DNA from: Chloroflexota bacterium
GTDB lineage: Bacteria; Chloroflexota; Anaerolineae; Aggregatilineales; J027
Direction of reading: 5' to 3'
NCBI GenBank assembly: GCA_013112715.1
Contig: JABFGB010000007.1
Coordinates: 124,001 to 188,000, forward strand
Length of the DNA: 64,000 nt
Shown here: positions 1 through 14,510 of the stretch, in pieces
Layout: each line of letters begins with the position of its first letter
How positions within the stretch are numbered: the stretch's first letter is position 1
Translations under genes and position numbers: made by a program
The notes under the pieces: model-generated
Databases searched by the model: none
The model's input: the letters and a program-made list of their open reading frames with translations, nothing else
Told to the model about the DNA's origin: nothing

Positions 1-2
1 TC

Positions 3-713
3 TATAAGTGGTTCGTGGCGCATGAAGACCCACTTGGTGAGGCAGCCCATAGCGAAATTAACAAAAACGGCCCTTATTGGGCAATGGTTATTGATCTGCA
101 AACATGTATTGGCTGTCGGCGCTGCGTTTATGCTTGCCAAGCGACCAACGACACCGCCAACGGTCATCTGTGGAATATCTTGCTTGAAGACGAGGATACC
201 TTCGCCAAACCCGTCTTTATCACTCGCCCCTGTATGCACTGCGAACATGCCCCTTGTGTCGAGGTTTGTCCAGTACAAGCCACCTTCCACCGCGAAGACG
301 GCCTTGTCGCAATGGACTATGACCGCTGCATCGGTTGTCGCTATTGCATGGTCGCGTGTCCTTATGGTGTGCGGGTCTTCAATTGGGAAGAAAACGACGG
401 CGAAAACCCGCAAGTGCCGACATGGGGCGAACCCGAAGTGCCACGTCGTCCGCGCGGGGTTGTCGAAAAATGCACCTTCTGTGCTCATCGCTTGGACAAA
501 GCCGAAGAGCGCGGTCTAACTCCCGGCAAAGACCCAGCTGTAACCCCGGCTTGCTGTGTGATCTGCCCCACCGAAGCCCGTGTTTTTGGCGACCTGCGCG
601 ACCCCAGCAGTCCAGCATCGCTTAAATTAGCTGGGCGACAGTCAGTAGTCCTACGTTCCGATCTTGGGACAAATCCGCGTGTTTTTTATCTGCTACCAAA
701 TGAGCAGGCCTAA
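3..713 (+). CDS. 4Fe-4S dicluster ferredoxin-like subunit of a respiratory oxidoreductase (5' end outside window)
   Basis: The electron-transfer subunit of a membrane oxidoreductase of the PsrB/DmsB/HybA type. Four cysteine groups are visible: CIGCRRCVYAC, CMHCEHAPCVEVCP, CIGCRYCMVACP and CTFC...CCVICP, giving sixteen cysteines, enough for four [4Fe-4S] clusters that would pass electrons between a catalytic subunit and the membrane partner. The frame is open to the left window edge (Y-K-W-F before the GTG at 15), and that GTG has no visible ribosome-binding site, so the true start and any Tat signal probably lie upstream. The NrfD-like gene follows after 17 bases with a good Shine-Dalgarno site, so the two form one operon. 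The catalytic (probably molybdopterin or hydrogenase) subunit is not in the window, so the substrate is unknown. Confidence 0.85.
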   Translation, partial: YKWFVAHEDPLGEAAHSEINKNGPYWAMVIDLQTCIGCRRCVYACQATNDTANGHLWNILLEDEDTFAKPVFITRPCMHCEHAPCVEVCPVQATFHREDGLVAMDYDRCIGCRYCMVACPYGVRVFNWEENDGENPQVPTWGEPEVPRRPRGVVEKCTFCAHRLDKAEERGLTPGKDPAVTPACCVICPTEARVFGDLRDPSSPASLKLAGRQSVVLRSDLGTNPRVFYLLPNEQA

Positions 714-730
714 CGAAAGGAGCCTCAACG

Positions 731-2014
731 ATGACCGCTAAGAACAATCGGCTTCAGTCTATCGGGGCAAAGGCACGCGCCGTACCACTGTTTTGGTGGT
801 GGGTGGCCTTCCTGCTTATCCCCATCACATTTGGTTTGGCATCAGGCCTATGGGTATTTTACAAAGGTCTGGGTGTCACCAATCTCACCGATGGTGCGCC
901 TTGGGGCCTGTGGATTGTGCTTGACCTATCCTGCATCGGTTTAGCTGCTGGCGCATTTTCGCTCTCGGCCATGACCTATCTGCTAGGACGCAAAGAATAC
1001 CAACCCCTTGCGCGGATCGCCGTGTTTATCGGGTTACTGGGCTACAGCGGGGCTTTGATGTGCCTCATTCTAGACATCGGACGCCCTGACCGTTTCTGGC
1101 ACGGGTGGGTCTACTGGAATATCCACTCCATGCTATGGGAAGTGACGATGTGCATCACACTCTACTTCTCGGTGCTTGCGCTAGAAGTCTTTCCGATGGT
1201 CGTGGAAATGCCCTTGTTTAATCGGTTTAAGCGTTTACAGCATTTCGGCCACACCGTCCATCATTTCGCCCCTGTACTGGCAGTCATTGGCATGTGCCTC
1301 TCTCTGCTGCATCAATCCAGCCTCGGCGGAACCTATGGGGTTGTGGTCGGGCGTGCCTCTTTGTTCCGTGCCACCATGCCCCTGTTGTTCATCGTCTCCG
1401 CCGTCGCAGGTGGGATGGCTTTCTCCGTCCATATGACGCTTATTGTGCAGTGGTTAAAGAAACGTACCCTTGTCCCCCTGTCTGTATTGTTTGAAGTGGG
1501 CCAAATGGCAGGAGCAATTCTGCTGATCTACCTATACATGCGTTTTTGGGACACCACTGTCGGCAATTACGGCTATTCACCGGGGCGCACCGAAGCCTTT
1601 ACCTCGCTAATGTCGGGGTCGTTTGCCATTTCGTTCTGGTCGTGGGAGATCATCTTGGGTGGGCTACTAGCGGCCTATCTGCTGATTCGTGCCCGTCAAG
1701 CCCAAAGTGTTGCCATGCTGCTGATCGGCAGTGGGCTGACGATGGGGGGCCTCGTTGCAAATCGGTTACATACAACTTTGCTGGCCTTTACCGAGCCTTT
1801 GACCGAATCGCCTGCTGTGACAAGCCCATTGGTGTCACACTATTTCCCGGCATGGACAGAAATCGGGACAGGCATTGGCATTGTAGCGGGCCTCACGCTG
1901 ATTTTCTCGTTGGGGATGCGCTACTTGCCCGCCTATCGAGGCGAACCTGTTGAAATTCCAGAGGAAGCCGTCGCCCCAACAGCATCGGCTGTCCCTGTTC
2001 CAGCGAGTGATTAA
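731..2014 (+). CDS. NrfD/PsrC/HybB-like integral membrane quinone-interacting subunit
   Basis: A 427-residue, very hydrophobic protein with about nine to ten transmembrane segments, starting near residue 20. Its length and pattern match the NrfD/PsrC family, including a GRPDRFWHGW stretch after the third segment (glycine-arginine-proline motifs are typical of this family). Family members exchange electrons between a quinone pool and an Fe-S partner, here the gene just upstream. AAAGGAG at 716-722 lies 8 bases before the ATG. The C-terminal tail after about residue 405 is short, hydrophilic and rich in Ala/Pro/Val. A strong hairpin follows the stop, so this gene ends the transcription unit. 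The direction of electron flow (quinone reduction or quinol oxidation) cannot be told without the missing catalytic subunit. Confidence 0.85.
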   Translation: MTAKNNRLQSIGAKARAVPLFWWWVAFLLIPITFGLASGLWVFYKGLGVTNLTDGAPWGLWIVLDLSCIGLAAGAFSLSAMTYLLGRKEYQPLARIAVFIGLLGYSGALMCLILDIGRPDRFWHGWVYWNIHSMLWEVTMCITLYFSVLALEVFPMVVEMPLFNRFKRLQHFGHTVHHFAPVLAVIGMCLSLLHQSSLGGTYGVVVGRASLFRATMPLLFIVSAVAGGMAFSVHMTLIVQWLKKRTLVPLSVLFEVGQMAGAILLIYLYMRFWDTTVGNYGYSPGRTEAFTSLMSGSFAISFWSWEIILGGLLAAYLLIRARQAQSVAMLLIGSGLTMGGLVANRLHTTLLAFTEPLTESPAVTSPLVSHYFPAWTEIGTGIGIVAGLTLIFSLGMRYLPAYRGEPVEIPEEAVAPTASAVPVPASD

Positions 2015-2025
2015 CAATGAAGTTT

Positions 2026-2080
2026 GGGGAGTACCGCAAAAATGCTATCAAAAGCATGACGGGTGGTACTCCTCGTTTTA
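2026..2080 (+). terminator. Branched hairpin terminator after the NrfD gene
   Basis: An outer 8-bp stem, GGAGTACC at 2028-2035 with GGTACTCC at 2065-2072, encloses an inner 5-bp stem, ATGCT at 2042-2046 with AGCAT at 2053-2057. A short T run (TTTT, 2076-2079) follows. The position directly after the NrfD stop fits a terminator separating that module from the hydrogenase operon. Confidence 0.6.
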
Positions 2081-2199
2081 CACCACATAAATTATTGTAG
2101 AAGTAGTAGATTTTTAAAAAGGGTTGTTGAGCTAGAGTAAATTTTCACATTTTACACTGTCATCGTCGTCATCATTGTTTGAATCAAAGGATGGTGTGG

Positions 2200-3372
2200 A
2201 TGACTTTGAACACCAACAGCAGTACCAAATATGTTTTAGAGAGTACCGATTTTCAGCAGTTGATTGATGTACTTGTGGGTATCGGTTATCGGGTGATCGG
2301 CCCAACCCTTGACCACAACGCCGTAATCTACGACGACATCACCGCCGTAACCGATCTTCCCATTGGTTGGACAGATGAACAAGATGCCGCAACCTACCGC
2401 CTGAACCGTCGCTCGGATGAGGCATTTTTCGGCTATGTCATCGCGCCCCAAGCATGGAAAAAATTCCTCTATCCCTCCCAAGTCCGACTCTGGCAAGCCG
2501 CCCTCAGCAATGGCAGTTTCGAAATCTTGCTAGACTCCGAAAAGCCTGAACCAATGGCCTTCATTGGCGTAAGGTCTTGTGAGCTTCATGCCATTGCCAT
2601 TCAAGATCGGGTCTTCATCGAAGGGGAATATGTAGACCCCACCTATCACGCCCACCGTGAGAATCTATTTATGGTCGCCGTCAATTGCGGGCAAGCTGGC
2701 GGGACATGCTTCTGTACCTCCGTCAATACTGGCCCCAAAGTGGAGGCGGGATATGATCTAGCGCTTACCGAAGTCATTGACCACGAAACCCATTATTTTG
2801 TAGTCGAAGTTGGCACGGAACGCGGTCAGCATGTCTTGGAACAGCTACCCGTTCGCAACGCCGATAAACGGGAAGCCAAACTTCCAAAGACCATTACCGA
2901 CCAAGCTGCGCATCAGATCAAGCGGCATCTCAACACTGACGGGATCAAAGAACTGCTCTATACCAATAGTGAGAACCCCCGCTGGGATGAGATCGCCACA
3001 CGATGTTTGACTTGCGCCAACTGCACGATGGTCTGCCCAACCTGTTTCTGCACGACGGTTGAAGATGTCACGGATTTGACAGGTCGGCAGGCTGAACGGG
3101 TTCGCAAATGGGACTCGTGTTTTACGATGGATTTTTCGTACATTCATGGTGGGAGTGTCCGCTATACCTCAAAGTCCCGCTATCGCCAGTGGATGACCCA
3201 TAAACTAGCAACATGGATAGATCAATTTGGCACACTCGGCTGTGTTGGCTGCGGGCGCTGCATTACATGGTGTCCAGTAGGCATTGACATCACCGCCGAA
3301 CTTGAGGCCATTCGTCAAACCAAAGCAAAAGGCGAGACTATCAAAGAGGGTAGCGATGAAAACATTGGATGA
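2200..3372 (+). CDS. hydB: NiFe hydrogenase (sulfhydrogenase-type) beta subunit, Fe-S protein
   Basis: First gene of a group 3b-type hydrogenase operon. The 390-residue protein carries two [4Fe-4S] motifs in its C-terminal third: [16 protein letters not shown] from residue 269 and [16 protein letters not shown] from residue 348, as in sulfhydrogenase beta subunits. It should wire the FAD-containing gamma subunit to the hydrogenase dimer in the cytoplasm. An in-frame TTG at 2179 and ATG at 2191 exist, but AAAGGA at 2186-2191 lies 8 bases before the ATG at 2200, which was chosen. The last 17 bases overlap the next gene, so translation is probably coupled. Cysteine pairs near residues 168-172 ([10 protein letters not shown]) may bind a further cluster or structural metal. 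Confidence 0.88.
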
Positions 3373-3808
3373 GCTTTTACATGAGCATGAATTCTTCAAA
3401 GGGTTTAAGCCGGAGCATTTGGAACTGATGGCGGGCTGTGCCACGAATGTCATCTTTGAAGCAGGCGAGTATATTTTCCGCGAAGGCGAAAATGCCGATG
3501 TATTCTACGTCATTCGGCACGGCCATGTCACCCTTGAAATTCATGACCCCCGACGTGGCCCGATTGCGATTGATACTTTGCAGGAAAATGACGTCCTCGG
3601 TTGGTCATGGCTGTTCGCGCCCTACCAATGGCACTTTGATGCAAAAGCCGTCAAGCTCACTCGCGCTGTAGCGATGGATGGGAAATGCCTGCGTACCAAA
3701 TGTGAGAACGATCATACACTCGGTTACTTGATGATGCAGCGGTTTGCGACAGTCTTGGCAGACCGTCTACAGCAAACCCGACTACAGGTGCTAAAACTCT
3801 ATGATTAA
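3356..3808 (+). CDS. Stand-alone cyclic nucleotide-binding (CRP-like sensor) domain protein within hydrogenase operon
   Basis: A 150-residue protein made almost only of a cNMP-binding beta-roll. The family pattern is visible: [29 protein letters not shown], then [14 protein letters not shown], then an alpha-helical tail. There is no C-terminal helix-turn-helix, so it is not a complete CRP/FNR regulator. The ATG at 3356 follows AGAGGG at 3345-3350. A longer frame upstream only re-reads the hydB 3' end. It overlaps hydB by 17 bases and hydG by 8, so it is translated together with the hydrogenase. The position suggests a regulatory or assembly role tied to the enzyme. The ligand (cAMP, c-di-GMP or none) cannot be told from the sequence. 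Confidence 0.85.
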
Positions 3809-4664
3809 TCTGACACCTCAACTGAAAACCCAGCAACTCACTGACCCAATGCAACCGGAGCCATTTCGTGTGAAACGGGTTATGAAAGAATCCTATGATA
3901 CCTTTACTCTAGAGATGGAACCCGTTAACTCCGAACGGCTGTTTACCTTCGCCCCCGGTCAATTTAATATGCTCTATATCTTTGGTGTGGGCGAAATCCC
4001 GATTTCGATCAGTGGTGATCCCAATCAGCCCGCTATGCTTGTCCATACCACCCGTATTGTCGGGGCGGTGACTAAGGCAATGAGCAAACTGAAAGCCGGG
4101 GATGTCTTAGGCGTGCGTGGCCCATTTGGAACAGGTTGGCCCGTGAGCGCGGCCAAGGGCTGCGATGTCGTACTTGTCGCAGGTGGGATTGGGCTTGCCC
4201 CCCTTCGTCCGGTGCTCTACCAAATGTTGGCCCATCGTGATCGCTACGGCAAAGTCGTTTTGCTGTATGGCTGCCGCAGCCCCGAAGATATTCTATTCCG
4301 TAAAGAACTCGAAAAATGGCGTGCCCGCTTTGACCTCGAAATCTTTGTGACAGTGGACTATGGGGACAGCGATTGGCACGGCAATGTCGGTGTTGTCACC
4401 AAACTCATCCCCAAAGCGCCCTTCGATGCGCTCAACGCGGTGACGATGGTCTGTGGCCCCGAAGTCATGATGCGTTTTACCGCGATTGAGTTACAAAAAC
4501 GCGGCGTGCAGGGCGACGCTATCGCCCTTTCGATGGAACGTAATATGAAATGCGCCATCGGCCTGTGTGGGCACTGTCAGTTCGGGCCGACCTTCATCTG
4601 CAAAGATGGGCCGGTGTTTACCTATCCCCAGCTTCAAAGCTGGTTGGCACAGTGGGAGATCTAA
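3801..4664 (+). CDS. hydG: NiFe hydrogenase (sulfhydrogenase-type) gamma subunit, FAD/NAD(P)H and 2Fe-2S binding
   Basis: The 287-residue diaphorase-like subunit that reduces or oxidises NAD(P). An N-terminal ferredoxin-reductase FAD domain is followed by a nucleotide-binding domain ([18 protein letters not shown] near residue 130; VCGPEVMM near 217). A C-terminal cysteine motif, CAIGLCGHC from residue 251 plus Cys267, fits the [2Fe-2S] site of the HydG/PyrK/dihydroorotate dehydrogenase electron-transfer family. The ATG at 3801 overlaps the previous stop by 8 bases. An internal ATG at 3849 is an alternative start that would remove a poorly conserved leader. With hydB it forms the NAD(P)-reactive half of the enzyme. 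Confidence 0.88.
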
Positions 4665-4666
4665 AA

Positions 4667-5455
4667 ATGACACACAATAAAAAACCGAAACTGGCAGTCT
4701 GGAAATTTGCCTCATGCGATGGTTGCCAATTGAGCATCCTCGATTGCGAAGATGAACTACTGGCCGTCGCCGGGGCAGTCGAAATCGCCTACTTCCCCGA
4801 AGCTACTCGTGCGACCGTGCGTGGCCCTTATGATGTCTCGTTGGTCGAAGGTTCGGTTACGACCTACCACGATGCCAAACGGATTCAACAAATCCGCGCC
4901 AACTCCAAATTCTTAATCACGATTGGGGCGTGTGCCACCTCTGGCGGAATTCAAGCTCTACGGAATTTCAAGGATGTGGACGAATTTATCCGCATCGTCT
5001 ATGCCCGGCCCTCTTACATAGAGACGCTAGAGCGCTCCACACCGATTAGCGAACACGTCTTTGTAGATTTTGAACTGCGCGGTTGCCCCATCAACAAATA
5101 TCAGTTAGTGGAAGTTCTCAGTGCCCATCTACATGGACGCAAACCCAACACCCCGGCCTACAGCGTGTGTGTAGAATGCAAGCGGCGTGCGACCACCTGT
5201 GTCATGGTAGCAAGTGGGACGCCTTGCTTAGGCCCGGTTACTCATGCGGGCTGTGGGGCGCTGTGCCCGGCCTATCATCGCGGGTGTTATGGCTGTTTCG
5301 GCCCAATGGAAACCCCCAATACCGCCTCTCTCAGTGCCCAGTGGCAGGAATTAGGTGTGACCGACGAAGGATTAGTCCGCGCATTCCGAGGATTTAACGC
5401 CTATTCCGAAGCCTTCCGAAAGGAGAGTCAAGCACATGAGCACGACGACAATTAA
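4667..5455 (+). CDS. hydD: NiFe hydrogenase small (delta) subunit
   Basis: The small subunit of a cytoplasmic NiFe hydrogenase, 262 residues, with no Tat signal peptide. Proximal-cluster ligands are visible as Cys17 and Cys20 (CDGC), Cys89 (IGACATSGG) and Cys140 (RGCPIN). A C-terminal run with [26 protein letters not shown] and CYGCFG supplies ligands for two more [4Fe-4S] clusters, the three-cluster arrangement of group 3 enzymes. GGGAG at 4654-4658 lies 8 bases before the ATG at 4667; an upstream extension of the frame lies inside hydG and was rejected. The 3' end overlaps hydA by 20 bases, which implies coupled synthesis of the two hydrogenase subunits. Confidence 0.92.
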
Positions 5456-6725
5456 AGTAGACATGCTCGCACGGGTTGAGGGCGAAGGCGGCCTCTATGT
5501 CAAAGTCCGCAATGACCAAGTACAAGAAGTCAAACTGAAATTCTTCGAACCCCCGCGCTTCTTTGAGGCATTTTTGCGGGGTCGTCAGTTTACCGAAGCG
5601 CCCGACATCACCGCCCGTATTTGTGGCATTTGTCCGGTGGCCTATCAAATGAGTTCCGTTCATGCGATGGAAGATGCACTGGGCATCAAGGTCGAAGGCC
5701 AACTTCGAGAACTGCGGCGTTTGTTATACTGCGGGGAATGGATCGAAAGCCATGTCCTGCACGTGTATATGCTGCACGCTCCCGATTTTCTAGGCTATTC
5801 CGATGCCATTCAACTCGCCAAAGACCATCCCGATGCTGTTAAGCGCGGCTTGCAGATGAAAAAGATCGGCAATGAGATTGTGACATTGGTCGGGGGACGC
5901 GAAATCCATCCCATCAATGTGCGGGTGGGCGGTTTCTATCGGGCACCAACCAAACGTGAACTGCTGACCCTTAAGGAAAAACTCGAATGGGCACATGACG
6001 CGGCCATAGAAACCATTTTATGGGTCGCCACCTTGCCCTATCCCGATTTCGAACAAGATTACGAGTTCGTCGCACTCCGTCATCCCGATGAATACCCCTA
6101 TAATGAGGGACATGTAGTTTCTAGCAAGGGCATTGACATCCCCGTGCAGAAATATGAAGAGTTTTTCCGCGAGGAACACGTTGAGCATTCAACCGCGCTC
6201 CATTCGGTCGTGCGTGGGACAGACAACTATTTTGTTGGCCCGCTGGCCCGCTATAACCTGAATTTCGACCAACTACCTGCCCACATCCAAAAAATCGCGC
6301 AGGATATTGGGTTTGAACCGCCTCAGCGAAATCCCTTTAAGAGTATTATCGTGCGGGCGATTGAAACCCTCTACGCAATTGACGAGTCCCTTCGCATCAT
6401 TGACCAATACGAGCGTCCGGCCCAACCGTATGTCGAAGGCAAACCCCGTGCGGGAGTCGGCTGTGGCTGTACCGAAGCTCCACGCGGCATCCTATATCAT
6501 CGGTATCGGATTGGTAAGGACGGCGCGATTTTGGATGCCAAGATTACCCCGCCCACTGCGCAGAATCAGAAAACGATTGAAAAAGACGTGTGGCATTTTG
6601 TCGAGACGGCGCTTGATTTACCGCAAGATCAGTTGGTGTGGCAATGTGAACAAGCCGTGCGGAACTATGACCCCTGCATTTCTTGTTCCACCCACTACCT
6701 AAAACTTGAAATGGATCGGGAATAA
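5436..6725 (+). CDS. hydA: NiFe hydrogenase large (alpha) catalytic subunit
   Basis: The catalytic subunit that binds the NiFe(CN)2CO site. Both signature motifs are intact: RICGICP with Cys63 and Cys66, and DPCISCSTH with Cys414 and Cys417 near the C-terminus. Nine residues follow His420, the usual cleavage point, so the protein has the short tail that the maturation protease removes. The length of 429 residues and the operon order indicate a group 3b (bidirectional, NADP-linked, sulfhydrogenase-like) enzyme; a subgroup tree would be needed to be certain. AGGAG precedes the ATG by about 8 bases. The physiological direction (H2 production to dispose of electrons, or H2 uptake) is not shown by the sequence. 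Confidence 0.93.
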
Positions 6726-6729
6726 CTTC

Positions 6730-7191
6730 ATGAAGGTGCTGTGCATTGGGGTTGGTAATGAAATGCGCGGGGATGATGTCGTAGGGCGTCTCGCCGTGCG
6801 CCTCCTGCGTTATCAACCCCTGCCAGACACCACCTTCATTGAAGCAACTGGTGAAGGTGCAGCCTTAATGGAGGCATGGGTTGGTGCAGACGCTGTATTT
6901 CTGATTGATGCGGTGTCGGCGGGTCAACCAAGCGGTACGATCTATCGCTTTTTGGCCCACAGCCAACCCCTCCCCGCTCAGTTTTTTTCATACTCCACCC
7001 ATGCCTTTAGTGTGGCCGAGGCCGTCGAAATGGCGCGGGTCTTGGGTCAACTTCCGGCCCATTTTGTGATCTATGGCATTGAAGGGGAGAACTTCGCGGC
7101 GGGCGCATCCATCACCCCATCAGTTGAAAAAGCTGTCCACGAGGTTATCCGCCAAATTTCCGCCGAAATCCACGCTTTACATCATCTATAA
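6730..7191 (+). CDS. Hydrogenase maturation protease (HyaD/HybD/HycI family)
   Basis: A 153-residue endopeptidase that would remove the nine-residue C-terminal tail of the large subunit encoded 4 bases upstream. It starts MKVLCIGVGNEMRGDDVVG, the family's N-terminal signature, whose acidic residue (in GVGNEMRGDD) contacts nickel. A second acidic position, FLIDAVSAG, and the STHAFSVAEA histidine complete the expected metal-sensing residues. The ATG at 6730 was chosen because it begins exactly at the conserved beta strand; an upstream ATG at 6706 lies inside hydA. No hypA-F genes are present here, so nickel and cyanide ligand insertion must be encoded elsewhere. Confidence 0.9.
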   Translation: MKVLCIGVGNEMRGDDVVGRLAVRLLRYQPLPDTTFIEATGEGAALMEAWVGADAVFLIDAVSAGQPSGTIYRFLAHSQPLPAQFFSYSTHAFSVAEAVEMARVLGQLPAHFVIYGIEGENFAAGASITPSVEKAVHEVIRQISAEIHALHHL

Positions 7192-10368: not shown

Positions 10369-12150
10369 ATGAAGCACCGTTATTTATGGTGGGGTTTCAT
10401 TATCATTGGATTGATATTGATTCTGGCGACACTCACAATGAGCCAGATTCACGCTCAAGACGGTGGTGATGAAGAGGAAAAAGAGTATTATGGAGCTAGG
10501 GTCTGTGGGGAGTGTCATTCTGATTTACGGAGTGACCAACGCGAGACGCATCACGGCCTAACCTTACAGGAAGTGGATGAAGAAACGGTCTTTGAGCCAT
10601 TCGATCAAGGCGAAGACGCCCGCATGGTTCAATTCCCCGGTTCGGGCACCCCGCGTGCCCTTCAATTAGAGGATGTCGCCTTTATCATTGGATCAGGGCG
10701 TAATGTTCAGCGCTTCCTCTATGCTGTCGCCGAAGATGAATATCAAGTGCTGCCTGTCGAATGGAATGTAGTAGAACAAAAATGGCAGCCTTTCCAATTA
10801 GCCGAAAGTTGGCCTGACCCCGCTTATGACTGGACACAAAACTGTGCCTATTGTCATACGACGGGTTTGAACCTTGAGCGTGGCCGTTGGGAAGATGAAG
10901 GTGTTCAATGTGAAGCCTGTCATGGCCCCGGTAGCCTACATGTAGATATTGTAGATGAGGTTGGCTCACGACCCACCCCCGAAGAACTACAGCAAATTCG
11001 GGATGCCATCTATGTCAGCCCGGATGCACAGGTCTGCGGTCAATGTCACAGTCAAGGGATGGATGCGGATGGAATTCACCCCTATCCGACCCAATATCTA
11101 CCCGGTGATGATCTGTTTGCCGCTTTCACCCTCGTTGCCGAAGATGATCCGGCCCATTGGTGGGCAACCGGCCATGCCTCACAGAAATATATGCAGTTTA
11201 ATGAATGGACAAAATCAGCCCATTCGCAGGCGCTCACCAATGCCAAAGACCAAGATTTTGCCTCGGATGAATGTCTGCGCTGCCACAGTGCGGACTATGG
11301 TTTCACCGAGCGCATAATCGCCCTAACTGAAGAGGGTAAGCGCGATGGTGATCCACCTGCGCTGCCGACGCTTGATACCGCACAATACGGCGTGACCTGC
11401 TCTGGTTGCCACAATCCACATAATGTTGAGAGTCAAGGGGCATTGATTACAGAGGATGCCTATACGAGCTGCATCAGCTGTCATAATACCCAAGACCTCC
11501 CCGTGATTCATCACCCCAATCAAGAGATGTTTGAGGGATTGACTATCATTGAAAATGTCGAAGGCATCCCTTCCGCACATTTCACTGCCGAAAATGGCCC
11601 AGATTGCGTGACCTGTCACCTGCCCGCTGTACCTGTAGGCGAAGGCAATCGCCTCAGTCATACCTTCCAACCCATCCTGCCCGGTGAGGCCATGAATGTA
11701 GAAGGGTTGCTCGATAGCTGCACGACCTGTCACGAAGAACAGGCTGATCAAGCCGGGATGCAGCAGTTGATTGACGATGTGCAAACCAGCACCCAAACCC
11801 GATTAGAAGCCGCCCGCGCCGCCGTCTCAGAAAACAGCCCTGAATGGATTACTGCCGCATTGGATTTCATTGAAGGCGACGGCAGTCTTGGCATCCACAA
11901 TTACTCCTATTCGAATGCTATGCTTGGCGCAGTCGAAAAAGAACTCAATATCGCCCCTGAAACTGATGAGGGACCGCAACTTAGTCCCGCTCCAACAGGC
12001 ACAACGCCTACCACTGATGAAGAAACGGCGGTTACGGAGGAAGAAACTGGCCTCGCCACACAATCGGTCATCATCATCGTCGCCTGTTTGCTGGCAATGG
12101 CCGTCGCGGGCTGGGTGTTTTTTGTGAAACAGAAGGGTAGTGCCCAATGA
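10369..12150 (+). CDS. Membrane-anchored nine-haem cytochrome c
   Basis: A 593-residue exported electron-transfer protein. Residues 8-24 form a signal/anchor helix. Nine CxxCH haem-binding motifs follow at about residues 46, 159, 181, 223, 302, 344, 368, 413 and 451. A helical stretch (about 460-535) and a Thr/Glu/Pro-rich linker lead to a second transmembrane helix at about 565-587 with a positively charged end, so the haem domain sits outside the membrane and is anchored at the C-terminus. The haem spacing resembles the cytochrome c554/HAO-like multihaem proteins, but no known enzyme signature was identified, so it is called only a cytochrome. It overlaps the next gene by 4 bases (ATGA), the start of a three-gene operon. 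Confidence 0.88.
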   Translation: MKHRYLWWGFIIIGLILILATLTMSQIHAQDGGDEEEKEYYGARVCGECHSDLRSDQRETHHGLTLQEVDEETVFEPFDQGEDARMVQFPGSGTPRALQLEDVAFIIGSGRNVQRFLYAVAEDEYQVLPVEWNVVEQKWQPFQLAESWPDPAYDWTQNCAYCHTTGLNLERGRWEDEGVQCEACHGPGSLHVDIVDEVGSRPTPEELQQIRDAIYVSPDAQVCGQCHSQGMDADGIHPYPTQYLPGDDLFAAFTLVAEDDPAHWWATGHASQKYMQFNEWTKSAHSQALTNAKDQDFASDECLRCHSADYGFTERIIALTEEGKRDGDPPALPTLDTAQYGVTCSGCHNPHNVESQGALITEDAYTSCISCHNTQDLPVIHHPNQEMFEGLTIIENVEGIPSAHFTAENGPDCVTCHLPAVPVGEGNRLSHTFQPILPGEAMNVEGLLDSCTTCHEEQADQAGMQQLIDDVQTSTQTRLEAARAAVSENSPEWITAALDFIEGDGSLGIHNYSYSNAMLGAVEKELNIAPETDEGPQLSPAPTGTTPTTDEETAVTEEETGLATQSVIIIVACLLAMAVAGWVFFVKQKGSAQ

Positions 12151-13373
12151 AAAGAATACTCCGACACCTTTTTACCTTCTGTTTTGGAGCAGGACTAGCT
12201 TTGGTCATAATTGCCTTGTGGCCGAGTTCTTCTCCCTCACCGTCGGTATTTAAACATCCCATTGTTGAAGCGCAAGATGGAGGGAGTGGTACAGCCAAAC
12301 AACCCACCGGCAATAATGCTTACTGCGCGGTATGCCATTCCCAAGAAGGCCGCACCGTTGAATTGGCCGATGGCTTGACCCTCGATTTGCATGTCACACC
12401 CGATATGATCGCCGATTCGGTACACGGTACCAGCAATCCGGAGGGGGTACTGGGCTGTGTGGATTGTCATGGTGAAGATGCCTTCCCACACGACGATCCC
12501 CTACCGGAAAATGGTCGAGCATTTACCATCCAAATGTCGCAAATTTGTACCGACTGCCATGTTGACCAAGCCCAAGACAACCTCGATGGTGTTCATGCTC
12601 AAGGGTTAGCCAACGGCAACTTGCGGGCGGCGGTCTGTGTGGACTGTCACGGCGCACACGATGTTCAACCCATCCAAAACCATCCTGAACTTGCAGCACA
12701 AACCTGTGGCACCTGCCATACCAGCATTTTTGATGAATACAAAGAGAGCATTCATGGTGAGGCACTTTTGGTAGAGGGCAATTCTGATGTCCCGACCTGC
12801 ATTACCTGTCATGGCGTGCATGGCATCAATACCCCAACAACTGCCCAATTTCGCAACCGTTCACCCGAGCTTTGCGCCAGTTGCCACGCCGACAAAGACT
12901 TGATGGCAAAATATGACATCTCTACGAATGTCTTTGACACCTATCTCAATGATTTTCACGGCACAACCGTCGCCATGTTTGAGCAGGATGATCCCGATGT
13001 CGCCAGCAACAAAGCGGTCTGTTATGACTGTCACGGTGTTCATAACATCACACCTGCCGACGATTCCAAGAGCCAAGTCGCTAAAGAAAATCTGTTGGCA
13101 ACCTGCCAGCAGTGCCATCCAAACGCCAGTAGCGATTTTCCTGATGCTTGGGTCGGTCACTTTGAGCCATCACGAGATCGGCATCCGCTGGTGTTTGTTG
13201 TAGACCTCTTCTATAAAATCCTCATTCCGGGTGTCATTGGCGGCTTTGCGTTCTTGGTTGGCACCGACATTTTTGCCCGAGCACGTCATATCGGCGGTGG
13301 CAAAAAAGATAAAGGGCACCGCGCACCGGATTCTGACGTCTTAGCTAAATCTGATCCGAAGAAGGAAGGCTAA
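12147..13373 (+). CDS. Second membrane-anchored nine-haem cytochrome c
   Basis: A 408-residue exported protein with a signal/anchor helix (about 8-26), nine CxxCH motifs at residues 60, 104, 134, 164, 187, 218, 243, 292 and 320, and one C-terminal transmembrane helix at about 349-371 followed by a Lys-rich cytoplasmic tail. Repeated HG-type histidines between motifs (SVHG, GVHA, SIHG, DFHG) are good candidates for distal haem ligands, suggesting bis-histidine haems for electron transfer rather than catalysis. The ATGA overlap with the upstream nine-haem gene and the 2-base gap to the cytochrome b gene suggest the three proteins form one complex. The layout resembles NapC/NrfH-like or cytochrome c3-like conduits, but it has more haems. 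Confidence 0.88.
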   Translation: MKRILRHLFTFCFGAGLALVIIALWPSSSPSPSVFKHPIVEAQDGGSGTAKQPTGNNAYCAVCHSQEGRTVELADGLTLDLHVTPDMIADSVHGTSNPEGVLGCVDCHGEDAFPHDDPLPENGRAFTIQMSQICTDCHVDQAQDNLDGVHAQGLANGNLRAAVCVDCHGAHDVQPIQNHPELAAQTCGTCHTSIFDEYKESIHGEALLVEGNSDVPTCITCHGVHGINTPTTAQFRNRSPELCASCHADKDLMAKYDISTNVFDTYLNDFHGTTVAMFEQDDPDVASNKAVCYDCHGVHNITPADDSKSQVAKENLLATCQQCHPNASSDFPDAWVGHFEPSRDRHPLVFVVDLFYKILIPGVIGGFAFLVGTDIFARARHIGGGKKDKGHRAPDSDVLAKSDPKKEG

Positions 13374-13375
13374 TC

Positions 13376-14476
13376 ATGGCAGCGATTGGCACCACAGTAA
13401 AACAACAATACGTCGAGCGTTTTGGCGCTGCCGAACGTATGGAACACATTGTGCTCATTATTTCGTTCAGCATGTTAGCCATCACCGGATTACCCCAGCG
13501 GTACGCCAACTATCAGATTGCTAAGGATTTTATCGAGCTACTAGGTGGCATCGAGAGCATCCGCATCATGCACCGCTTTTTCGCCACCCTCTTAATGGCG
13601 GGTGCAATCTATCATGGTGGGGCACTGACCTATAAAATCTATGTGCGTGGTTCCAGCCTCAACATGCTTCCCACCGTCAAAGACCTCCGCGATCTAATTG
13701 GATGGGTACTGTACAATCTTGGCCTCCGCAAAGAACACCCCAAGATGGGTCGCTATAATTTTGGCGAAAAGGCCGAATACCTAGCACTGGTTTGGGGAAC
13801 ACTGGTGATGATTGCAACGGGATTTATGATGTGGAATCCCATTGCCACCTCCAAAATCCTACCCGCCGAAGTTATTCCTGCTGCACGTTTGGCACATAGC
13901 TCAGAGGCATTGTTAGCGGTGGCCTCCATCATCATCTGGCATATGTACAATGTGCATGTCCGCCGTTTCAACCGCGCCATGTTCACAGGTAAAATGCCAG
14001 TCCATCATATGGAAGAGGAACACGCCCTTGAATTGGTTGCTATGCAGGAAGGCACCGCTACCCCCGTTGTCCCGGCTGAAATTATGGCCCGTCGTCACAA
14101 GCGATTTTGGCCCTACGCGGTTCTCATGACCATCTTGCTGACCATCGGCCTCTTCTTTTTCGTCACATTCGAAGATAGTGCCCTCGACACTGTTCCACGT
14201 CAGCCCGTTGAAGCATCCGTTGACATCAATCCCGATCAAGGCAATGCCGAGGCAGGGGCGGCTAAATGGGAATCACTCCAATGTGGCAGATGTCATGGCG
14301 AAACCGGACAAGGTGTCCCTCCGATTCCAGCAATCCGCAGCACCCGACTCGAATTCGCACTGTTTGCTGCCGATATTCGGCGTGGCCCAGCCGACATGCC
14401 CGCTTATGGCCCCGGCCAAGCCAGCGAACAAGACATCGCCGATCTGTACGCTTATCTGCGCTCAAGCCTAGAGTAA
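13376..14476 (+). CDS. Cytochrome b561-type membrane protein fused to a C-terminal cytochrome c domain
   Basis: A 366-residue fusion. Residues 15-200 hold four transmembrane helices with histidines placed for b-haem ligation (His24, His66, His80, His189, His194), like formate dehydrogenase gamma/cytochrome b561 proteins. Another helix lies at about 245-264, then a c-type domain with CGRCH at residue 303 and a likely axial methionine in ADMPAYGPG. It would move electrons between membrane quinones and the c-type haems outside. AAGGAAGG lies just upstream of the ATG. It sits 2 bases after the second nine-haem gene and ends the operon. The fusion puts the exit haem directly on the quinone-reactive subunit, so it probably feeds or drains the two nine-haem proteins. 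Confidence 0.85.
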   Translation: MAAIGTTVKQQYVERFGAAERMEHIVLIISFSMLAITGLPQRYANYQIAKDFIELLGGIESIRIMHRFFATLLMAGAIYHGGALTYKIYVRGSSLNMLPTVKDLRDLIGWVLYNLGLRKEHPKMGRYNFGEKAEYLALVWGTLVMIATGFMMWNPIATSKILPAEVIPAARLAHSSEALLAVASIIIWHMYNVHVRRFNRAMFTGKMPVHHMEEEHALELVAMQEGTATPVVPAEIMARRHKRFWPYAVLMTILLTIGLFFFVTFEDSALDTVPRQPVEASVDINPDQGNAEAGAAKWESLQCGRCHGETGQGVPPIPAIRSTRLEFALFAADIRRGPADMPAYGPGQASEQDIADLYAYLRSSLE

Positions 14477-14482
14477 TTGTGA

Positions 14483-14510
14483 AGGGGGGTTAGCCACCCT
14501 CTTTTATTTT
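14483..14510 (+). terminator. Terminator of the cytochrome operon
   Basis: A G-rich arm (GGGGGGT, 14484-14490) pairs with ACCCTCT (14496-14502, with G-U pairs) across a 5-base loop and is followed by TTTTATTTT. It lies directly after the cytochrome b/c stop. Confidence 0.6.

What the first reader, a model, noticed from the sequence alone, without database searches (positions are those of the whole stretch)
10369..14476. Three-gene electron conduit: two nine-haem cytochromes c and a cytochrome b/c fusion
Counting CxxCH motifs gives 9, 9 and 1 (plus b-haem histidines in the third). The first two have an N-terminal export helix, a C-terminal anchor and tight translational coupling (ATGA, then 2 bases). 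The third joins a quinone-reactive cytochrome b to a cytochrome c domain. Together they could make a quinone-to-outside (or reverse) chain of at least 19 c-type haems. I know of no described complex with exactly this composition. The terminal acceptor or donor is not encoded nearby.
Basis: partly seen in the sequence, partly recalled or inferred. Interest (0 to 1): 0.75.

Follow-up and report, generated by a model that had tools for sequence, protein, structure and literature searches.

The report
OcwA-type cytochrome operon in Anaerolineae
Three neighbouring genes in an uncultured Chloroflexota bacterium encode what looks like a membrane 'wire' carrying electrons from the respiratory quinone pool to an outward-facing nine-haem reductase of the OcwA family (known from Thermincola); many relatives keep the trio or plug the same reductase into a different quinone module, so the parts are known but this assembly is a new variant.

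Summary
In detail: 9, 9 and 1 CxxCH motifs, ATGA overlap, 2-bp gap, membrane anchors, and an FdnI-like cytochrome b fused to a monohaem c domain. The reading needs one large correction: the terminal reductase IS encoded. Gene 1 is a full-length homologue of OcwA (PDB 6I5B), the nine-haem cell-surface reductase of Thermincola potens; all nine haem sites align. Gene 2 is a membrane-anchored, MtrA-like conduit with nine invariant candidate distal histidines for nine haems; gene 3 is the quinone-reactive end. The order gene1-gene2-gene3 occurs at 31 places in 28 of 151 genomes of the same order. The same reductase also occurs with a gene-2 relative plus QrcC/QrcD-like subunits, or fused into a 17-haem protein followed by QrcC/QrcD; one such locus starts 2.5 kb before the window. 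On the reductase tree the three arrangements interleave, so the quinone module was exchanged repeatedly. Genes 2-3 also occur with a flavoprotein instead of gene 1. Best model: a modular menaquinol:acceptor oxidoreductase, probably for extracellular or broad-specificity acceptors. Direction and substrate are inferred. I found no described complex of this make-up; the principle (Nrf, Mcc, CbcL) is known.

The parts
10369..12150 (+). gene 1: OcwA-type nine-haem reductase, 593 aa, membrane-anchored
   Evidence: 9 CxxCH; 6I5B E 7.5e-52 over residues 36-535; profile 2.3e-87
12067..12123 (+). gene 1 C-terminal membrane helix (residues 567-585), absent from the aligned part of OcwA
   Evidence: hydropathy; helix 564-590 in the low-confidence model
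11509..11514 (+). gene 1 His381-His382, the distal His pair at the haem-5 pocket (OcwA 380/381)
   Evidence: alignment and counts 67/69 and 51/69
11185..11190 (+). gene 1 Lys273-Tyr274, where OcwA has the haem-2 His pair 281/282
12147..13373 (+). gene 2: MtrA-like nine-haem electron wire, 408 aa, C-terminal membrane anchor (about residues 348-376)
   Evidence: 9 CxxCH; profile match to MtrA 6R2Q E 1.2e-10; nine invariant further His
13376..14476 (+). gene 3: FdnI-type cytochrome b fused to a monohaem cytochrome c domain, 366 aa
13412..14020 (+). gene 3 cytochrome b part (residues 13-215), candidate haem-b ligands H24, H66, H80, H174, H189
14243..14464 (+). gene 3 C-terminal monohaem c domain (residues 290-363)
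   Evidence: PF13442 43.8 bits
14481..14505 (+). terminator-like hairpin after gene 3
   Evidence: consensus scan only
1..713 (+). paralogous module, part inside the window: QrcC/DsrO-like Fe-S protein (starts at -93); the 17-haem OcwA fusion precedes it at -2543..-90
731..2014 (+). paralogous module: QrcD-like NrfD membrane subunit
   Evidence: PF03916 87.8 bits; QrcD model 267 bits, cut-off 570

Best explanation
The three genes encode one membrane-bound menaquinol:acceptor oxidoreductase. Gene 3 (diheme cytochrome b fused to a monohaem c) oxidises quinol; electrons leave through its c haem to gene 2, a nine-haem bis-His MtrA-like wire held at the outer face of the cytoplasmic membrane; gene 2 passes them to gene 1, an OcwA-type nine-haem reductase, which gives them to an acceptor outside the membrane. 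No outer-membrane marker was found (no Omp85, no MtrB), so the outer face of this membrane is close to the cell surface, and extracellular or shuttle-type acceptors (metal oxides, humics, flavins; preferred) and small oxyanions are both reachable, as for OcwA. SHOWN by sequence: the families, the operon, conserved candidate ligands, conserved gene order, and repeated exchange of the quinone module. INFERRED: complex formation, quinol-to-acceptor direction, identity of the acceptor.
For: Gene 1 = OcwA family; OcwA reduces electrodes, soluble shuttles and oxyanions (PMC6703420). Gene 2: nine haems and nine invariant further His, no sign of a substrate pocket. Gene 3: FdnI-type cytochrome b with c domain. 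Operon: ATGA overlap, 2-bp gap. Gene1-gene2-gene3 at 31 places in 28 of 151 genomes; second copy in the own genome at C15 (L062). The same reductase with gene 2' + QrcC + QrcD, or as 17-haem fusion + QrcC + QrcD; interleaved on the tree, 10 changes. Genes 2-3 next to another kind of extracytoplasmic redox enzyme, a Tat-type FAD protein plus 5-haem cytochrome (L059, L060, L065). Same logic as NrfABCD and MccACD (PMC8076601). Ccm-type maturation genes present; no MtrB or Omp85.
Against: No biochemistry or expression data. OcwA's haem-2 His pair is replaced by K-Y here (N or Y in most relatives), so one of its two open sites is changed. NrfD-type modules run both ways (Qrc reduces quinone), and CbcL/MtrH/MtoC-type cytochromes are implicated in both directions (PMC6295460), so direction is not fixed. 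The gene 1 model is of low confidence (pLDDT 57), and no complex was modelled.
Confidence: 0.58

Rival explanations
1. A dedicated reductase of a small nitrogen or sulfur compound (nitrite, hydroxylamine, NO, sulfite, thiosulfate, tetrathionate), i.e. a Nrf/Mcc-like enzyme with an OcwA-type catalytic subunit, with no role in extracellular electron transfer.
For: Gene 1 belongs to the NrfA/c554/MccA superfamily; OcwA reduces nitrite and hydroxylamine, though slowly (PMC6703420). His pair at haem 5 kept. Modules II and III have the Fe-S + NrfD subunits of NrfABCD/MccACD. Genes 2-3 also serve a flavoenzyme-type partner. NarL-like response regulator beside the paralogous module.
Against: The genome has its own NrfHA. 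OcwA's nitrite turnover is about 1 per minute. A nine-haem wire before a nine-haem reductase is long for a soluble substrate. NrfA's Tyr-Tyr after the third haem (CAQCHVEYYF in the own NrfA) is not seen after the matching haem of gene 1 (CISCHNTQDL; position judged by haem order).
Confidence: 0.27
2. The chain runs inward: gene 1 takes electrons from an extracellular donor (Fe(II), a partner cell, humic hydroquinone) and gene 3 reduces quinone.
For: CbcL/MtrH/MtoC-type modules are found in Fe(II) oxidisers too (PMC6295460); Qrc reduces quinone; the genome has haem-copper oxidases.
Against: Characterised OcwA/OmhA relatives act as reductases; gene 1 keeps a substrate-type haem pocket; genes 2-3 also pair with a reductase-type flavoprotein and 5-haem cytochrome.
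Confidence: 0.1
3. Co-transcribed but separate cytochromes: genes 2-3 form a general quinol dehydrogenase, gene 1 an independent storage or detoxifying cytochrome; no single complex.
For: In L061/L083 gene 1 is separated from genes 2-3 by a two-component system; genes 2-3 occur without gene 1.
Against: 31 conserved triplets with short gaps; fusion of the OcwA part with a further multihaem part in type III; membrane anchors on all three proteins.
Confidence: 0.05

Closest known systems
OcwA of Thermincola potens (PDB 6I5B; mBio 2019, PMC6703420)
   Same: Nine haems, full-length homology, His pair at the haem-5 pocket
   Different: Here membrane-anchored at the C-terminus and encoded with gene 2 and a cytochrome b (the T. 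potens pathway proteins have scattered locus numbers: TherJR_1117, 0333, 1122, 2595); haem-2 His pair replaced by K-Y; His in 69/69 where OcwA has Met402
OmhA of Carboxydothermus ferrireducens (PDB 6QVM; PMC7829351)
   Same: Same superfamily, mainly in the C-terminal half (E 2.2e-22 single sequence, 8.4e-43 profile)
   Different: Eleven haems, secreted, no linked quinone module of this kind described in the passages read
MccACD and NrfABCD (multihaem reductase on an Fe-S/NrfD module)
   Same: The logic: catalytic multihaem cytochrome, electron-transfer subunits, quinone-reactive membrane protein; the paralogous modules II and III do use Fe-S + NrfD subunits
   Different: This operon has an FdnI-type cytochrome b fused to a monohaem c in place of Fe-S/NrfD, and an MtrA-like nine-haem intermediate
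CbcL/MtrH/MtoC and CbcBA (Geobacter and others)
   Same: Multihaem c (nine in CbcL) plus HydC/FdnI-like cytochrome b as quinol oxidase for extracellular electron transfer (PMC6295460, PMC12307469)
   Different: Split into two genes, the cytochrome b carries its own monohaem c domain, and the terminal reductase is in the same operon; the 2018 survey listed no CbcL-type homologue in Chloroflexi
MtrA/DmsE decahaem cytochromes
   Same: Gene 2 profile matches MtrA of 6R2Q (E 1.2e-10)
   Different: Nine haems, C-terminal membrane anchor, no MtrB porin in the genome

Membership tests
OcwA (gene 1) | Full-length sequence homology with nine aligned CxxCH sites | tested here: met
   residues 36-535 against 12-504 of 6I5B, all nine sites aligned
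OcwA (gene 1) | Distal His-His pair at haem 5 (OcwA 380/381) | tested here: met
   H381-H382 in gene 1; 67/69 and 51/69 in relatives. That the iron is five-coordinate is not shown
OcwA (gene 1) | Distal His-His pair at haem 2 (OcwA 281/282) | tested here: not met
   K273-Y274 in gene 1; the second position is N or Y in 61 of 69 family members. So: OcwA-like, not OcwA in the strict sense
OcwA (gene 1) | His/Met coordination of haem 9 | tested here: inconclusive
   OcwA Met402 is His404 in 69/69, Met386 is conserved as Met387; which Met binds haem 9 was not found in the text read
OcwA (gene 1) | Cell-surface reduction of electrodes and shuttles | not testable with these tools
   needs protein
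NrfA nitrite reductase (gene 1) | Five haems and whole-profile match above cut-off | tested here: not met
   nine haems; PF02335 22.3 bits against cut-off 24.1, residues 407-486 only; a true NrfA is elsewhere in the genome
MtrA/DmsE decahaem (gene 2) | Ten haems and family score above cut-off | tested here: not met
   nine haems; TIGR03508 50.5 bits against 192.2
MtrCAB-type conduit | MtrB/PioB porin partner | tested here: not met
   no PF11854 match in the genome; no Omp85 either
FdnI-type cytochrome b (gene 3) | Homology over the four-helix cytochrome b with haem-ligand His | tested here: met
   profile E 5.6e-17 to 1KQF_C; H24, H66, H174 align with FdnI His, H189 lies one residue off
Formate dehydrogenase gamma (gene 3) | Score above NCBIfam cut-off and FdnG/FdnH neighbours | tested here: not met
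   65.9 bits against 115.85; no such neighbours among the adjacent genes
CbcL/MtrH/MtoC | One polypeptide with multihaem c part followed by cytochrome b | tested here: not met
   two genes here
CbcL/MtrH/MtoC | Sequence homology to CbcL | not tested
   no CbcL sequence was at hand
NrfABCD / MccACD complex | NrfD-type membrane subunit with four-cluster Fe-S protein in the operon | tested here: not met
   absent from genes 1-3; present in the paralogous modules II and III

The most novel reading that the evidence does not exclude
A so far undescribed family of quinol-driven respiratory complexes in Anaerolineae, in which one OcwA-type nine-haem reductase is plugged, repeatedly over evolution, into two unrelated quinone modules (FdnI-type cytochrome b/c fusion, or Fe-S + NrfD), and in which the cytochrome b/c module in turn accepts other terminal reductases (flavoprotein, large multihaem proteins): a mix-and-match respiratory system that would give Chloroflexota without an outer membrane a route for extracellular electron transfer.
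Probability: 0.45. Interest if true: 0.65.

Novelty: new variant of a known kind. Interest (0 to 1): 0.52.

Why it matters
Anaerolineae are common in digesters, activated sludge and anammox granules, and what they respire there is poorly known. Here their multihaem cytochromes fall into a readable scheme (reductase + wire + one of two quinone modules), which names the likely terminal reductase and gives concrete proteins to test. It also extends OcwA-type reductases, known from a few Gram-positive iron reducers, to a whole order of Chloroflexota, with changed active-site residues that can be tested directly.

Tried and rejected
Act/alternative complex III: no ActB/ActC-like gene in the operon. 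Porin-cytochrome conduit: no MtrB or Omp85. Gene 1 as the nitrite reductase of the cell: a separate NrfHA exists; hhalign of the gene 1 profile to that NrfA aligns only the last two haems and the helical end. Structure of gene 1: low-confidence model (pLDDT 57); its Foldseek top hit 6I5B is used only as support for the sequence match. Gene 2 fold search: best Foldseek E 0.0098, MtrA and HAO folds tied at VIA Z 7-8, so 'MtrA-like' rests on the profile match. BLASTP between gene 2 and the 17-haem protein gave only repeat-driven matches, so its 8-haem tail is not shown to be a gene-2 relative. One genome-contig scan named only seven relatives. NarG search: no match over cut-off. Paper searches for OcwA together with Anaerolineae found one paper, which uses OcwA only as a specificity control.

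Full report
OBSERVATION. The three ORFs are as described: 10369-12150 (593 aa), 12147-13373 (408 aa) and 13376-14476 (366 aa), with 9, 9 and 1 CxxCH motifs, an ATGA overlap and a 2-base gap. Shuffled versions of the proteins have 0.03, 0.05 and 0.00 motifs on average. Genes 1 and 2 have hydrophobic helices at both ends; gene 3 has an FdnI-type cytochrome b part, a further membrane helix (247-265) and a C-terminal monohaem c domain. A terminator-like hairpin follows gene 3 at 14481-14505 (consensus only). Chance is not an issue.

GENE 1. Against solved structures the best match is 6I5B (E 7.5e-52, residues 36-535 of gene 1 against 12-504), with all nine CxxCH aligned; next is 6QVM. 6I5B is OcwA, the nine-haem terminal reductase at the cell surface of Thermincola potens (PMC6703420; Foldseek lists the entry with that title). 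A profile of 21 family members raises the match to 2.3e-87. OcwA has two open haems, 2 and 5, each under a His-His pair (281/282 and 380/381). My alignment reproduces that numbering at both motifs with a single offset. In gene 1 the haem-5 pair is kept (H381-H382; 67/69 and 51/69 in the family) and the haem-2 pair is not (K273-Y274; N or Y at the second position in 61 of 69). OcwA Met402 is His in all 69; OcwA haem 9 is His/Met, so haem 9 may be bis-His here, but which Met is the ligand I could not establish.

GENE 2. A conserved Anaerolineae family (40-96% identity to gene 2 over 28 members). Besides the nine CxxCH histidines exactly nine other histidines are invariant in 28/28 (H93, H115, H150, H171, H203, H225, H271, H299, H338): nine haems, nine candidate distal ligands, as expected for a low-spin electron wire without a substrate site. 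The profile matches MtrA of 6R2Q (E 1.2e-10); the model (pLDDT 74) superposes on 212 of 265 MtrA residues at Z 7.2 and rmsd 4.9, tied with HAO-type folds. It falls far below the DmsE family cut-off.

GENE 3. Profile match to the cytochrome b subunit of formate dehydrogenase-N (1KQF_C, E 5.6e-17). H24, H66 and H174 align with FdnI histidines and H189 lies one residue off; H66 and H174 are invariant, H24, H80 and H189 kept in 24/26. No formate dehydrogenase neighbours. The c domain resembles cbb3/c6-type monohaem domains. In the wider class the C-terminal part varies from 0 to 10 haem motifs.

CONSERVATION AND MODULES. Searches of 151 genomes of the same order with each protein, combined, give gene1-gene2-gene3 in order at 31 places in 28 genomes; the own genome has a second, diverged copy (C15; L062). 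In 30 places gene 1 is followed by a diverged gene 2 (gene 2') and no gene 3. In the loci of that kind that were fetched, gene 2' is followed by QrcC-like Fe-S and QrcD-like NrfD genes in nearly all cases (exceptions L072 and L146; QrcD not seen in L076 and L144). A third arrangement is a 17-haem protein: its first 545 residues are 51% identical to gene 1, an 8-haem part follows, then QrcC and QrcD (17 rows including the own genome, some of them near-copies). In the own genome this module starts 2543 bases before the window and runs to 2014; in L067, L070, L071, L160 and L161 types I and III also lie in one locus. On a maximum-likelihood tree of 70 reductases the three types interleave: 10 changes by parsimony, and well-supported branches alone force at least 5 (I), 3 (II) and 2 (III) (quick search, no bootstrap). 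Gene conversion between linked copies may account for part of it (types I and III of L160 and L161 fall in one clade). Genes 2-3 also occur without gene 1, preceded by a 5-haem cytochrome and an FAD protein with a Tat-like start (L059, L060, L065), and gene 2-gene 3-like pairs are widespread in the class (gene 3 match at E 1e-20 in 121 of 298 genomes; contexts). Gene 1 itself is nearly confined to this order: only 3 of 400 genomes drawn across the phylum, the own one included, match at E 1e-40.

MECHANISM. The exchange pattern suggests which part does what. What stays while the quinone module changes (gene 1 plus a multihaem partner) is the reductase side; what stays while the reductase changes (genes 2-3) is the quinone side. 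The scheme matches NrfABCD and MccACD, where a multihaem reductase related in haem arrangement to OcwA is fed by an Fe-S/NrfD module (PMC8076601; PMC6703420), and CbcL/MtrH/MtoC, where a multihaem c part is joined to an FdnI-like cytochrome b that is thought to oxidise quinol for extracellular electron transfer or to run in reverse (PMC6295460). I therefore infer: quinol -> b haems of gene 3 -> its c haem -> nine haems of gene 2 -> nine haems of gene 1 -> acceptor. Families, order and candidate ligands are shown; complex formation, direction and acceptor are inferred. The genome lacks Omp85 and MtrB matches (genome 96% complete), which fits an envelope without an outer membrane and argues against a porin conduit; Ccm-type maturation genes are present; two haem-copper oxidases and a separate NrfHA exist, no NarG above cut-off. 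The acceptor may be extracellular/shuttle-type (preferred) or a small N/S compound.

IDENTITY. The closest named records are Anaerolineae/Chloroflexi MAGs (CFX5 of QMIT01, DTUCFX7, MAG_03, a groundwater MAG); the CFX5 of QMIT01 need not be the UTCFX5 of PMC5460018, whose size differs.

NOVELTY. I found no paper describing this gene set (open-access library only). OcwA homologues outside Thermincola are reported in Dethiobacter and Anaerosomatales (PMC10376724, PMC9686372), partly beside MtrA homologues, with no cytochrome b fusion mentioned in the passages I read. The parts are known; the assembly and the module exchange are apparently undescribed: a new variant of a known kind.

Noticed in passing
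G000:C7:121457-126014 = window -2543..2014 (L005): 17-haem cytochrome (OcwA part + 8-haem part) followed by QrcC/DsrO-like Fe-S and QrcD-like NrfD genes; a histidine kinase and LuxR-type response regulator lie just upstream (-5033..-2804).
   Followed up: yes
window 2179-7191: Group 3-type (sulfhydrogenase-like) NiFe hydrogenase gene set with a cNMP-binding-domain gene and a maturation protease, between the two multihaem modules.
   Followed up: partly
L162 (G164:C236:1-14000): Cluster with two OcwA-like ORFs (10 and 6 CxxCH) and ORFs of 22 and 32 CxxCH next to a gene 2-gene 3 pair: a possible large extracellular electron transfer island in another Anaerolineae family.
   Followed up: no
L059, L060, L065: Gene 2-gene 3 pair preceded by a 5-haem cytochrome (weak match to Cgr1) and a Tat-type FAD protein closest to ketosteroid dehydrogenase/flavocytochrome c families: perhaps a quinol-driven flavin-dependent reductase of unknown substrate.
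   Followed up: partly
L062 9153-10823 (-), L066, L070, L071, L076: A 7-haem membrane cytochrome (NapC/NirT-like start in the L062 copy) recurs beside the type I operon on the opposite strand; ImcH-like in outline.
   Followed up: partly
L061 7523-9764; L063 427-2659: A histidine kinase/response regulator pair of the same look as the one upstream of the window's 17-haem gene lies inside or beside type I operons: a likely regulator of these modules.
   Followed up: no
L075, L154, L155: 13-haem fusion of an OcwA part with a short gene-2-like tail (42-47% identity), with no QrcC/QrcD or gene 3 found nearby: a fourth arrangement.
   Followed up: no
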